DNA from: a virus
Direction: 5' to 3' (one strand)
IMG/VR virus record: IMGVR_UViG_3300031974_000334
Span: 1-34,045 of that record
DNA length: 34,045 bases
Shown: piece by piece, positions 22,891 to 28,564 of the stretch
Position numbering within the stretch: the stretch's first letter is position 1
How the letters are laid out: every line of letters starts with the position of its first letter
Program-made: the position numbers and the translations under genes
Notes under the pieces: generated by a model
The model's database searches: none
What the model was told of the DNA's origin: nothing
What the model saw: only the letters and a program-made list of their open reading frames with translations

Positions 22891-24060
22891 TCACTTTGTT
22901 TGATTGTTGACGTTGTTGTGCGCGTGACCCTGCGCTGGGATAGCAGCAAGTGTTTCCACATGCTGTATTCTTTCACCGATCCACCGCATAACTGGCACTG
23001 CCATAGAGTTGCCCATTGCCTTGTATCGCGGGCTGTCTGGGCAATCATCTGCCGATTTGTTGCGGTATGGAATGCGGGTGTAATCGTCTGGGAAACCTTG
23101 TAGGCGTTCGCATTCTTTAGGCGTTAATCTTCTGACTGTCATTTGCTGACGCAATAAAGGCGTGTTGCGCCCAGATGCATTGCAGTTTGTGTTCAAAGTA
23201 TTAAAAACATTTCCTTCACGCAGTTCGCCTGCTTGGTTTTGAGCAAAGCAAACAGCAGGCGTTTTGCTTTGGTCAAGGGTAGGCGTTACATCTGTTGACG
23301 CGCTTAGGCTTTGTGTAGAGCTATTCAGTGCGCCAAATACCAATGGCTTTGTCTCCCAATCAACGCCGCCCATGCCATATGATGCCGTTATTGAATTGAC
23401 CTTGTTTTGTTCTGTTACGAACTGCTCGGTTTGTGCATCGTATGCGCTTCCAACGCGGCTTGTAAGGCACTTGGCAACTTCTTGTTTCGCTTCTCGGCTC
23501 GGCGCAGGATGCCCTGACAGGCTTTCGCGCTCAAATAAAACCGCTGCGGCACGTCGCCAGTCTCCAAGGTATCCGACAACAAACACACGTCTGCGTCTTT
23601 GGGCCACTCCGAAGTATTGAGCGTCAAGCACTCTGTAGGCGAACCCATACCCGAGTTTGCCCAACGCCCCGAGGAAGGTTCCAAAATCCCGTCCTCTGTT
23701 GCTAGACAAGACGCCGGGCACGTTCTCCCAAACCAACCACTTGGGCTGATACTGTGCAGCAATGGCAAGATAGGTAAGCATGAGGTTTCCCCTTGGGTCA
23801 TCAAGTCCTTTGCGAAGTCCTGCGATGCTAAAGGCTTGGCAGGGTGTTCCTCCCACAAGAAGGTCAATTGGTCTGTCATTGGGCCACTCTTTGTATTTTG
23901 TCATATCACCAAGGTTTGGCGTGTCTGGATAATGATGCTGCAACACAGCACTGGGGAATGCTTCTATCTCACTGAACCACTGCGGTTGCCATCCAAGCGG
24001 ATGCCAAGCAACCGTTGCTGCTTCAACTCCTGAGCATACACTTCCATAATTAAAAGCCAT
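22891..24060 (-). CDS. DNA (cytosine-5) methyltransferase
   Basis: The 389-aa enzyme carries the C5-methyltransferase motifs in order: I (YGSVCSGVEAATVAW, residues 5-19), IV with the catalytic Cys74 (GGTPCQAFS), VI (WENVPG, Glu112), VIII (QRRRRVF, 154-160), a target-recognition region of ~140 residues, IX (VRRLTPKECERLQGFP, from 309) and X (AMGNSMAVPV, 348-357). It transfers methyl from S-adenosylmethionine to cytosine, probably to protect phage DNA from restriction. No cognate endonuclease lies beside it; the neighbour is a PD-(D/E)XK exonuclease-like gene. The recognition sequence cannot be read from the protein. Confidence 0.95.
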   Translation of the reverse strand: MAFNYGSVCSGVEAATVAWHPLGWQPQWFSEIEAFPSAVLQHHYPDTPNLGDMTKYKEWPNDRPIDLLVGGTPCQAFSIAGLRKGLDDPRGNLMLTYLAIAAQYQPKWLVWENVPGVLSSNRGRDFGTFLGALGKLGYGFAYRVLDAQYFGVAQRRRRVFVVGYLGDWRRAAAVLFERESLSGHPAPSREAKQEVAKCLTSRVGSAYDAQTEQFVTEQNKVNSITASYGMGGVDWETKPLVFGALNSSTQSLSASTDVTPTLDQSKTPAVCFAQNQAGELREGNVFNTLNTNCNASGRNTPLLRQQMTVRRLTPKECERLQGFPDDYTRIPYRNKSADDCPDSPRYKAMGNSMAVPVMRWIGERIQHVETLAAIPAQGHAHNNVNNQTK

Positions 24061-26986: not shown

Positions 26987-27505
26987 ATGGAAACTAAAGT
27001 AAAAGAACAAAATATCGTAACCGAAGCCATTGCAGAGGCATGGAAAGGCTCTATCAATGCAAAGCAAGCTGCGAAGAAATACTTAGCTATGCTTAAAGAA
27101 GACAAAGCATTACGCGATGAAGCGACAGAGGCTTGGTTAGAGCGCATCGCATATCAGGATGTGGTAAAATATCCGCGCAACTACCGCTCTACATTTAAGA
27201 GCAAGGTGCTGCAAAAAGGCGAGACAGCTACGCCCAGTGTTAATCTTGCAGGCGTCGTGTCTGTTTACGCGCAGGACATGTTTGAACGCTTCCGCTTGCC
27301 GATCAGTGGTGTGCCGCTTGGCGATGCCACACGTGAGGATTTAGGGAATGCAATCGCGCATGAAGGGTCACGCAGTACGCACCATGCGCAGCAGAAAGTG
27401 TTTTATGAAAAGATGCAAAAGCGCCTGTCTGGCAATGCACAAATTGTGCGTGAAGTCTGGACAACAGAGGAAGCTGAACGCGCCTATCAAGAGGCACTAG
27501 CATAA
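26987..27505 (+). CDS. Hypothetical protein upstream of the TIGR-like array
   Basis: This 172-aa protein starts after GAGGACAAG. It is helical and basic. An N-terminal HTH-like part (IVTEAIAEAWKGSINAKQAA, then KKYLAMLKEDKALRDEATEA) is followed by a Ser/Thr-rich middle and an amphipathic helical C-terminus. I do not recognise the family. It ends one base before the array begins and is on the same strand as the array and the Tas-like gene. It may be cotranscribed with them and could be a further part of that system or an unrelated early gene. Confidence 0.7.
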   Translation: METKVKEQNIVTEAIAEAWKGSINAKQAAKKYLAMLKEDKALRDEATEAWLERIAYQDVVKYPRNYRSTFKSKVLQKGETATPSVNLAGVVSVYAQDMFERFRLPISGVPLGDATREDLGNAIAHEGSRSTHHAQQKVFYEKMQKRLSGNAQIVREVWTTEEAERAYQEALA

Positions 27506-27517
27506 TGTTACAGGGGG

Positions 27518-27553
27518 TCATACGAGGAGCGCAGCAATGCCATGTATGGGTCA
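27518..27553 (+). ncRNA. TIGR unit 1 (putative 36-nt tigRNA)
   Basis: Variable segment A is ACGAGGAGC (27522-27530), the core is at 27531-27541, and variable segment B is ATGTATGGGTC (27542-27552). The closing stem is GGGGGT/ACCCCC (27513-27518 with 27553-27558). It is preceded by GTTACAG. Confidence 0.75.
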
Positions 27554-27574
27554 CCCCCAACTTTTTACAGAAGG

Positions 27575-27610
27575 CCATGTGAGATACGCAGAAATGCCAT
27601 AGCCATATCG
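27575..27610 (+). ncRNA. TIGR unit 2
   Basis: Segment A is GTGAGATAC (27579-27587), core 27588-27598, segment B ATAGCCATATC (27599-27609). The stem is short, AGGC/GCCT (27572-27575 with 27610-27613). It is preceded by TTTTTACAG and directly joined to unit 3. Confidence 0.7.
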
Positions 27611-27624
27611 CCTCAAGGGAAGGG

Positions 27625-27660
27625 CCATCAAACGTTTGCAGAGATGCCTCTATAGTGCCG
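27625..27660 (+). ncRNA. TIGR unit 3
   Basis: Segment A is CAAACGTTT (27629-27637), core with G and no A-A run (GCAGAGATGCC, 27638-27648), segment B TCTATAGTGCC (27649-27659). The stem is the longest, GGGAAGGGC/GCCCTTCCC (27617-27625 with 27660-27668). It is a close relative of unit 5. Confidence 0.75.
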
Positions 27661-27685
27661 CCCTTCCCAACAAGTTTAACAGGAG

Positions 27686-27721
27686 CCGTCATGACCACGC
27701 AGCAATGCCAAAATCCGAACG
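27686..27721 (+). ncRNA. TIGR unit 4
   Basis: The first conserved triplet is CGT instead of CAT. Segment A is CATGACCAC (27690-27698), core 27699-27709, segment B AAAATCCGAAC (27710-27720). The stem is GGAGC/GCTCC (27682-27686 with 27721-27725). Confidence 0.72.
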
Positions 27722-27735
27722 CTCCAATGGGAGAG

Positions 27736-27771
27736 CCATCAAACTTTCGCAGAAATGCCTCTATAGGGGCG
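27736..27771 (+). ncRNA. TIGR unit 5
   Basis: Segment A is CAAACTTTC (27740-27748), core 27749-27759, segment B TCTATAGGGGC (27760-27770). The stem is GGGAGAGC/GCTCTCCC (27729-27736 with 27771-27778). It differs from unit 3 at two bases in segment A and two in segment B. Confidence 0.75.
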
Positions 27772-27794
27772 CTCTCCCAACCAGTTACAGGGGG

Positions 27795-27830
27795 CCATCC
27801 AAAAATAGCAGCAATGCCATGTAATCCCCG
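27795..27830 (+). ncRNA. TIGR unit 6
   Basis: Segment A is CCAAAAATA (27799-27807), core 27808-27818, segment B ATGTAATCCCC (27819-27829). The stem is GGGGGC/GCCCCC (27790-27795 with 27830-27835). It is preceded by GTTACAG; the Tas-like gene starts 26 bases after the unit. Confidence 0.75.
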
Positions 27831-27856
27831 CCCCCACACTTAAGAAAGGAAAACAA

Positions 27857-28564
27857 ATGGACAAGAGATACGAAAACCCCACCATCGCAAAGATACAGTT
27901 TGCATGGCGCAACCGCCAGAACATGGTCAGAGCAGAGGCCAAGCTAGTCCTGCAAATCAAAGCCACATGTCGCGGCCTGCGCGATGGTGACATTAAAGAG
28001 GCAAACAAACTATTTGCGCAGCTAAAGAAAGGCGAGGCTACATTTGAGGCAACGACAGCCACGCAACCTTTGTTCGAGGCGCGTGAGCCACTACTAGAAG
28101 CCCGCAAAAACTTTGAGAAATATCTTGCAGATTTAGCTAAAGAATTACCCGCCGCAACATTTGTAGATAAGGTGAAAGGCTTTGGGCATCTTGGCCTTGC
28201 GGGTATCGTGGGTGAAGTCGGTGACTTCATGGCATACGAAAAAGAGTTGGACGGTATCTACAAACGTGCTGGGCTTGCCGTGATTGAGGGTGAGCGGCAG
28301 CGTAAGTGCAGCAATGCCGACATGGCCTTGATGCACGGTTACAGCCCATCCAGACACGCTGTGTTTTGGACGATTGGCGATAGCTTGCTAAAAGCGCAGG
28401 GCAAGGAAGAAAACGCAGGGCCATACAGAGTTATTTATGACAAGCGCAAAGAGTACGAACGTGAGCGCGTAGAGACAGACGGACACGCACACAATCGCGC
28501 ACTGCGATATATGACGAAGCGCCTTGTGCGTGACCTGTACAATGAATGGAAAGAGGTTGCTTAA
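27857..28564 (+). CDS. TasA-like protein (Nop/IS110 Transposase_20-like domain, no nuclease)
   Basis: The 235-aa protein starts after AAGAAAGGAAAACAA. Residues ~10-95 form basic and then acidic helices, probably a coiled coil. Residues ~101-235 resemble the C-terminal Transposase_20 part of IS110 proteins, which shares its fold with Nop proteins of box C/D RNPs. They include VDKVKGFGHLGLAGIVGEVG (103-122), YKRAGLAVIEGE, HGYSPSRHAVFWTIGDSLLK (160-179), GPYRVIYDKRKEYERER and GHAHNRALRYMTKRLVRDLY (209-228). The DEDD catalytic domain of IS110 is absent, as are HNH and RuvC motifs. A nuclease-less Nop-type protein next to a 36-nt guide array is the TasA form of TIGR-Tas. It should bind tigRNAs and target DNA without cutting; a remnant IS110-like protein is the alternative. 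Confidence 0.75.
   Translation: MDKRYENPTIAKIQFAWRNRQNMVRAEAKLVLQIKATCRGLRDGDIKEANKLFAQLKKGEATFEATTATQPLFEAREPLLEARKNFEKYLADLAKELPAATFVDKVKGFGHLGLAGIVGEVGDFMAYEKELDGIYKRAGLAVIEGERQRKCSNADMALMHGYSPSRHAVFWTIGDSLLKAQGKEENAGPYRVIYDKRKEYERERVETDGHAHNRALRYMTKRLVRDLYNEWKEVA

What the first reader, a model, noticed from the sequence alone, without database searches (positions are those of the whole stretch)
27518..27830. Twelve variable segments as possible dual spacers; targets unknown
Each unit carries a 9-base segment A (ACGAGGAGC, GTGAGATAC, CAAACGTTT, CATGACCAC, CAAACTTTC, CCAAAAATA) and an 11-base segment B whose first 9 bases would be spacer B (ATGTATGGG, ATAGCCATA, TCTATAGTG, AAAATCCGA, TCTATAGGG, ATGTAATCC). 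In tandem-spacer targeting the two halves pair with opposite strands of one site. Paired A and B motifs should therefore lie close together in a target, which can be searched.
Basis: inference. Interest (0 to 1): 0.8.

Follow-up and report, generated by a model that had tools for sequence, protein, structure and literature searches.

The report
Phage stem-loop dual-guide RNA array (TIGR-TasA)
A marine bacteriophage carries six small hairpin RNAs, each holding two 9-letter guide sequences, next to the gene for a nuclease-free RNA-guided DNA-binding protein (TasA); it is a new member of the recently described TIGR-Tas systems, and what its guides aim at could not be found.

Summary
The twelve variable segments are real, and the dual-spacer reading is right in kind but off in register. 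The array (27507-27839) lies between a 172-aa ORF and a 235-aa ORF that is a TasA protein: Nop domain, no nuclease, best match the TasR structure 9MTY by sequence and by fold. About 190 related A/B pairs from marine viral loci, plus 49 candidate pairs from rhizobial prophage DNA, give one grammar: a variable stem closing on GC, then C-A, nine bases, GCAGNAATGCC-A, nine bases, C-G, stem. Stems covary. In same-slot units flanks differ by about 6% but spacers by about 45%, so guides are hypervariable. No target was identified: no excess over re-paired controls in 0.94 Mb of phage DNA with related cassettes, none in rhizobial prophage DNA, 0 of 279 alphaproteobacterial genomes per pattern, and scattered exact IMG/VR hits. 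One U2 hit (tailA/tailB junction of marine podoviruses) is only a candidate. Bonus: the 172-aa ORF is a conserved third member of the cassette, which occurs in structurally unrelated phages. Identity about 0.9; function unproven.

The parts
26987..27505 (+). ORF172, conserved cassette gene of unknown function directly upstream of the array
   Evidence: found in 46 of 53 related loci (the 7 without it begin at a contig end just upstream of tasA); order ORF172-array-tasA in 25 of 25 loci measured; no Pfam, PHROG, PDB or fold match
27507..27839 (+). stem-loop TIGR array, six units
27521..27529 (+). U1 spacer A TACGAGGAG
   Evidence: register
27543..27551 (+). U1 spacer B TGTATGGGT
   Evidence: register
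27578..27586 (+). U2 spacer A TGTGAGATA (this unit's stem is only 4 bp)
27600..27608 (+). U2 spacer B TAGCCATAT
27628..27636 (+). U3 spacer A TCAAACGTT
27650..27658 (+). U3 spacer B CTATAGTGC
27689..27697 (+). U4 spacer A TCATGACCA
27711..27719 (+). U4 spacer B AAATCCGAA
27739..27747 (+). U5 spacer A TCAAACTTT
27761..27769 (+). U5 spacer B CTATAGGGG
27798..27806 (+). U6 spacer A TCCAAAAAT
27820..27828 (+). U6 spacer B TGTAATCCC
27857..28564 (+). TasA: 235-aa Nop-domain protein without nuclease domain
   Evidence: phmmer to 9mty_A (TasR) E 1.4e-9; profile E 3.7e-15; Foldseek top hits TasR and TasH structures; PHROG 4285 'transposase' E 5e-15; no Pfam family

Best explanation
The locus is a TIGR-TasA cassette of the stem-loop type. 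The array would be transcribed as one RNA and cut in the linkers into hairpin guide RNAs. Each hairpin offers two 9-nt guides, held by box-C (CA) and box-D (CG) contacts to a TasA dimer, and the two guides pair with opposite strands of one 18-bp DNA site (one strand reads A, a 0-2 base gap, then the reverse complement of B). TasA has no nuclease, so it most likely binds and bends the site, a programmable roadblock or repressor. Since the cassette moves between unrelated phages and its spacers are replaced far faster than their flanks, the likeliest use is interference with something variable met inside the infected cell, competing phages first. Shown here: the anatomy, the family of the protein, the covarying stems, the hypervariable spacers, and spread of the cassette across phages. 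Inferred from the published TasA, TasR and TasH work: RNA processing and DNA binding. Not shown: any target or function.
For: Protein: 9mty (TasR) E 1.4e-9 and 3.7e-15, fold matches to TasR, TasH, IS621/ISCro4 and Nop5. Grammar: 284 of 318 candidate units with 11/11 regions, spacer boundaries sharp. Stem: six pairs, 84-100% paired over 214 distinct units, with GC/AT/TA exchanges at pairs 3, 5 and 6; a slide of 1 to 3 breaks most pairs. Same 9+9 grammar in rhizobial prophage loci whose TasA is 33.7-39% identical. 518 unit pairs with near-identical flanks: flanks differ by 6-7%, loop by 6%, spacers by 47% (A) and 44% (B). Cassette in 26 held records, none with detectable homologues of the window's terminase, portal, capsid or tail proteins. 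Published stem-loop TIGR-TasA array processed into single hairpin units (PMC12045711).
Against: No target found in any set. IMG/VR hits are few and mostly unrelated to each other. No RNA or binding data. The TasA model has low confidence in its C-terminal half (mean pLDDT 65), so fold TM-scores are low (0.30-0.42 for the Tas structures) although Foldseek ranks only relatives first. U2's stem is only 4 bp.
Confidence: 0.8

Rival explanations
1. Same TIGR-TasA cassette, but the guides regulate host genes early in infection rather than rival phages.
For: The cassette lies apart from the structural genes and on the opposite strand; the phages that carry it are structurally unrelated, which would fit a shared host.
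Against: 0 of 279 alphaproteobacterial genomes match any of the five patterns that cover the six units; spacers are hypervariable, unexpected for conserved host genes. The host is unknown, so the test is weak.
Confidence: 0.25
2. Same cassette used for self-regulation: the guides bind the phage's own genome.
For: Nuclease-free TasA could do this without damage; the TIGR paper lists gene regulation as an option.
Against: Best own-genome tandem site has 4 of 18 mismatches (five of six units); U2 has none at 4 or fewer, ungapped; the MW960032.1 array has no self site at 2 or fewer mismatches.
Confidence: 0.05
3. A box C/D-like RNA system in which each 9-nt segment pairs alone with RNA (snoRNA-like), not as a DNA pair.
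For: Nop fold shared with box C/D proteins; Nop5 appears among the fold matches.
Against: The closest relatives are TasR and TasH, which bind DNA; published TasR had no activity on RNA.
Confidence: 0.06
4. A run of terminator or attenuator hairpins, or a decayed IS110 element, without guide function.
For: Each unit is a hairpin; PHROGs call the protein 'transposase'.
Against: Invariant loop and box motifs with random 9-nt segments of constant length, together with an intact TasA and a conserved neighbour gene in 46 loci; no IS110 N-terminal domain.
Confidence: 0.02

Closest known systems
Stem-loop TIGR-TasA array (Peromyscus leucopus gut contig, Faure et al. 2025, PMC12045711; sections read)
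   Same: Solo Nop-domain protein; [quoted passage not shown] palindromic stems in place of edge repeats
   Different: Loop repeat here is nearly constant (GCAGNAATGC) and spacers are exactly 9 nt; a conserved extra gene (ORF172) precedes the array; marine phage cassette
Dual-repeat TIGR-TasR / TasH (structures 9MTY, 9W04 and others)
   Same: 9+9 spacers (as in TasR), box C CCA and box D, Nop domain
   Different: No RuvC or HNH nuclease; stems in place of edge repeats
Rhizobium phage RHph_X2_25 (MW960032.1) and rhizobial prophage TasA loci (this work; not annotated as TIGR)
   Same: ORF-array-tasA order, C-A-N9-CGNNNNCCA-N9-CG grammar
   Different: 33.7% TasA identity, different loop repeat, units also after tasA, temperate phages
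IS110 / IS621 bridge-RNA transposases
   Same: C-terminal domain fold, split guides
   Different: No DEDD nuclease domain; an array of six guides, not one bridge RNA

Membership tests
TIGR-Tas, stem-loop TasA type | Tas protein with Nop domain, solo (no nuclease) | tested here: met
[quoted passage not shown]
   9+9 nt, CA ... CG flanks
TIGR-Tas, stem-loop TasA type | variable palindromic stems in place of edge repeats | tested here: met
   six covarying pairs over 214 distinct units; U2 has 4 bp
TIGR-Tas, stem-loop TasA type | array adjacent to the tas gene | tested here: met
   25 of 25 loci measured
TIGR-Tas, stem-loop TasA type | array processed into single-unit guide RNAs bound by Tas | not testable with these tools
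   needs RNA sequencing
TIGR-Tas, stem-loop TasA type | two spacers pair with opposite strands of one DNA site | tested here: inconclusive
   no target enrichment
IS110 transposase with bridge RNA | N-terminal DEDD nuclease domain | tested here: not met
   235 aa, PDB match limited to the C-terminal region, no Pfam family
CRISPR-Cas | 25-36-nt direct repeats with single spacers | tested here: not met
   units share only an 11-nt loop and short boxes

The most novel reading that the evidence does not exclude
A three-part mobile phage weapon: ORF172, a hypervariable dual-guide hairpin array and nuclease-free TasA together block rival phages by RNA-guided DNA roadblocks, with ORF172 a so far unrecognised partner (loading, effector or guide renewal). 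U2 would silence the tail-tube B gene of a competing marine podovirus at its start codon (exact 18/18, no gap, at one homologous site in three contigs).
Probability: 0.12. Interest if true: 0.85.

Novelty: new member of a known kind. Interest (0 to 1): 0.5.

Why it matters
The natural targets and role of TIGR systems, above all of nuclease-free TasA, are stated as open in the founding paper. This work gives about 190 distinct marine guide pairs in a fixed register, spread over structurally unrelated phages, and rhizobial prophage arrays in named genera, so target hunting becomes a concrete, host-anchored test. A conserved partner gene would be new: the main text of the paper says that TasA lacks clear associations with other proteins, apart from a ParB-like one in some loci.

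Tried and rejected
Own-genome targets: none at 3 or fewer mismatches (U2, ungapped only). Targets in phages with related cassettes: 0.94 Mb, 168 pairs, pairs with a site at 1 or fewer / 2 or fewer mismatches 1 / 16 against re-paired means 0.92 / 15.4; four geometries and both registers likewise flat. The single 1-mismatch case (L038 unit in L012, L016, L020, L028 and L029, gap 2) is expected by chance. Palindromic or overlapping targets: no A/B similarity. T7-type promoter idea for U3/U5 (CACTATAG-like, from recall): exact U3 pattern 0 hits in IMG/VR, U5 2 unrelated hits; dropped. Shared rhizobial units in 35 genomes of one genus: 0 hits for two patterns. IMG/VR hits collapse to U1 2, U2 3, U3 0, U4 4, U5 2, U6 7 distinct sites (my grouping) without a common theme; a seventh scan with a pair from related arrays gave 8 hits in unrelated contexts. 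160 unscanned pairs show no excess in the fetched hit contigs (0/0/6 pairs at 0, 1 or fewer, 2 or fewer mismatches; null 0/0.2/7.6). Rows dropped: the 168-pair set leaves out units whose two regions were not 11/11 or whose stem had fewer than 5 bp, which drops U2 of the window; one search includes it. The 49 rhizobial pairs come from a pattern and include about 8 that lie away from the arrays or have other loop sequences and are probably chance. ORF172 count corrected from 47 (note) to 46 of 53 loci on re-reading. TasA of the window: no relative in genome contigs or plasmids. Limits: 40 of the 53 loci were used to reach whole records, and 26 of these 40 were compared for gene content, most of them fragments; the last 842 bases of one record were not fetched.

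Full report
Observation. Six units stand at 27507-27839 between a 172-aa ORF (26987-27505) and a 235-aa ORF (27857-28564). The unit grammar occurs 6 times on the + strand of the window, never on the other strand, and 0.26 times per shuffle (maximum 3; 100 shuffles).

The protein. The 235-aa ORF matches PDB 9mty_A by phmmer (E 1.4e-9) and as a 23-sequence profile (E 3.7e-15). The TIGR paper states that 9MTY is its TasR model. Foldseek with an AlphaFold2 model (mean pLDDT 65) ranks TasR, then the TasH complexes, then IS110-type transposases and Nop5 among weak matches. No Pfam family is found; PHROGs call it a transposase. It is a TasA.

The array. 53 viral loci encode relatives. A pattern for stem, box C, loop and stem gives 318 candidate units, 284 with two 11-base regions; in the 180 distinct A/B pairs of regions, positions 1 and 11 are nearly fixed (A and C) and positions 2-10 are near random. 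Hence 9-nt spacers, box C = CA after a stem ending in GC or GT, box D = CG. Over 214 distinct units the six stem pairs are 84-100% paired and exchange GC, AT and TA; slides of the 3' arm mostly break them. The published stem-loop TIGR arrays have this anatomy (8-12-nt spacers, palindromes in place of edge repeats, sometimes a conserved loop sequence).

An independent branch. Rhizobium phage RHph_X2_25 encodes a 33.7% identical protein. Relatives sit in Rhizobium esperanzae and Metarhizobium album; of 394 genomes of that family 8 have a match, 6 of them strong. Arrays found beside five of the rhizobial proteins examined (L103, L104, L105, L109, and L108 with L111) read GC-CA-N9-CGNNNNCCA-N9-CG-stem, while the pattern found none of this form beside L110 and L114. 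This fixes the same register without using the marine data.

Evolution. In 518 unit pairs from different loci with near-identical flanks, the flanks differ by 6-7%, the loop by 6%, and the spacers by 47% and 44%; 129 of the 518 share both spacers exactly, so turnover is fast but not total. Among 26 held records all have tasA and 24 have ORF172, but none has a detectable homologue of the window's terminase, portal, capsid, tail tubular or 1117-aa proteins. The window itself belongs near HTVC010P pelagiphages (best capsid matches 70-72%, portal about 60%). So the cassette moves while its guides change.

A third part. ORF172 is found in 46 of 53 loci; the other seven start at a contig end just upstream of or inside tasA (contig ranges). 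The order ORF172-array-tasA holds in 25 of 25 loci measured, with the first recognised unit 17-258 nt after ORF172. Four rhizobial loci have a 199-aa ORF in the same place, and two more a partial match; profile-profile comparison gives probability 77% and E 2e-5 over 155 columns, pairwise BLASTP E 0.007. Homology is likely, not proven. Libraries and folds name no function.

Target geometry. The paper reports that the two spacers pair with opposite strands, that 0-2 bp gaps are tolerated, and that cuts leave 8-nt 3' overhangs; with its C-5 rule this gives one strand reading A, gap, reverse complement of B. This is my derivation. Other geometries were also tested.

Target search. (a) Own genome: no site at 3 or fewer mismatches for five units, none at 4 or fewer, ungapped, for U2. 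(c) 0.45 Mb of rhizobial phage and prophage DNA: 0, 1, 5, 35 of 49 pairs at up to 0, 1, 2, 3 mismatches against re-paired means 0, 0.2, 5, 32. (d) 279 alphaproteobacterial genomes, five patterns covering six units: 0 of 279 each. (e) IMG/VR, exact, all six units: U1 3, U2 5, U3 0, U4 4, U5 2, U6 17 stretches, that is about 2, 3, 0, 4, 2 and 7 distinct sites. One site deserves a test: U2 matches 18 of 18 without gap at the tail tubular A stop / B start of podoviruses in three contigs (L164, L166, L167; the gene names are mine, from similarity to the window's proteins and from the annotation of the phage MEP301 match). One homologous site among about three for that unit is compatible with chance, and other guides do not hit these contigs.

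Conclusion. Competitor interference is my preferred role from mobility and hypervariability (about 0.4 among roles); nothing here proves it.

Literature. PMC12045711: parts 1-3 of 12 of the whole text, sections 9, 10, 24 and 49, and passages. PMC12385481: passages only. Listing searches. In this library only four papers contain 'tigRNA', and no passage seen describes ORF172-like partners; supplements could not be read.

Noticed in passing
26987-27505: A conserved 172-aa protein precedes the array in 46 of 53 loci and has a likely homologue in rhizobial TIGR loci: a candidate new partner of TasA.
   Followed up: partly
L103 (MW960032.1 20918-29703), 3341-4900: Rhizobium phage RHph_X2_25 (host Sinorhizobium americanum) has an unannotated TasA and stem-loop TIGR array with a named host; the annotated CDS start overlaps array units.
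   Followed up: yes
L104, L105, L108, L109, L111: TIGR-TasA loci with stem-loop arrays in rhizobial genomes, two of them named (Rhizobium esperanzae, Metarhizobium album).
   Followed up: partly
27857-28564: PHROG 4285 ('transposase', integration and excision) matches this and the rhizobial TasA proteins, so phage TasA genes are probably mislabelled as transposases.
   Followed up: no
L164 4342-4359, L166 10249-10266, L167 3398-3415: Exact ungapped U2 target at the tail tubular A/B gene junction of marine podoviruses; the sample number of L166 (3300025138) is also that of a cassette carrier (L029).
   Followed up: partly
1-34045: The window is an HTVC010P-like podovirus of about 49% G+C, unlike its AT-rich pelagiphage relatives (the AT-richness is from recall), with a C5 DNA methylase (22891-24060); host unknown.
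   Followed up: partly
L038 4565 unit; L012 423, L016 1160, L020 1160, L028 672, L029 672: One guide pair has a one-mismatch, gap-2 site conserved in five other cassette-carrying phages; at the level expected by chance.
   Followed up: yes
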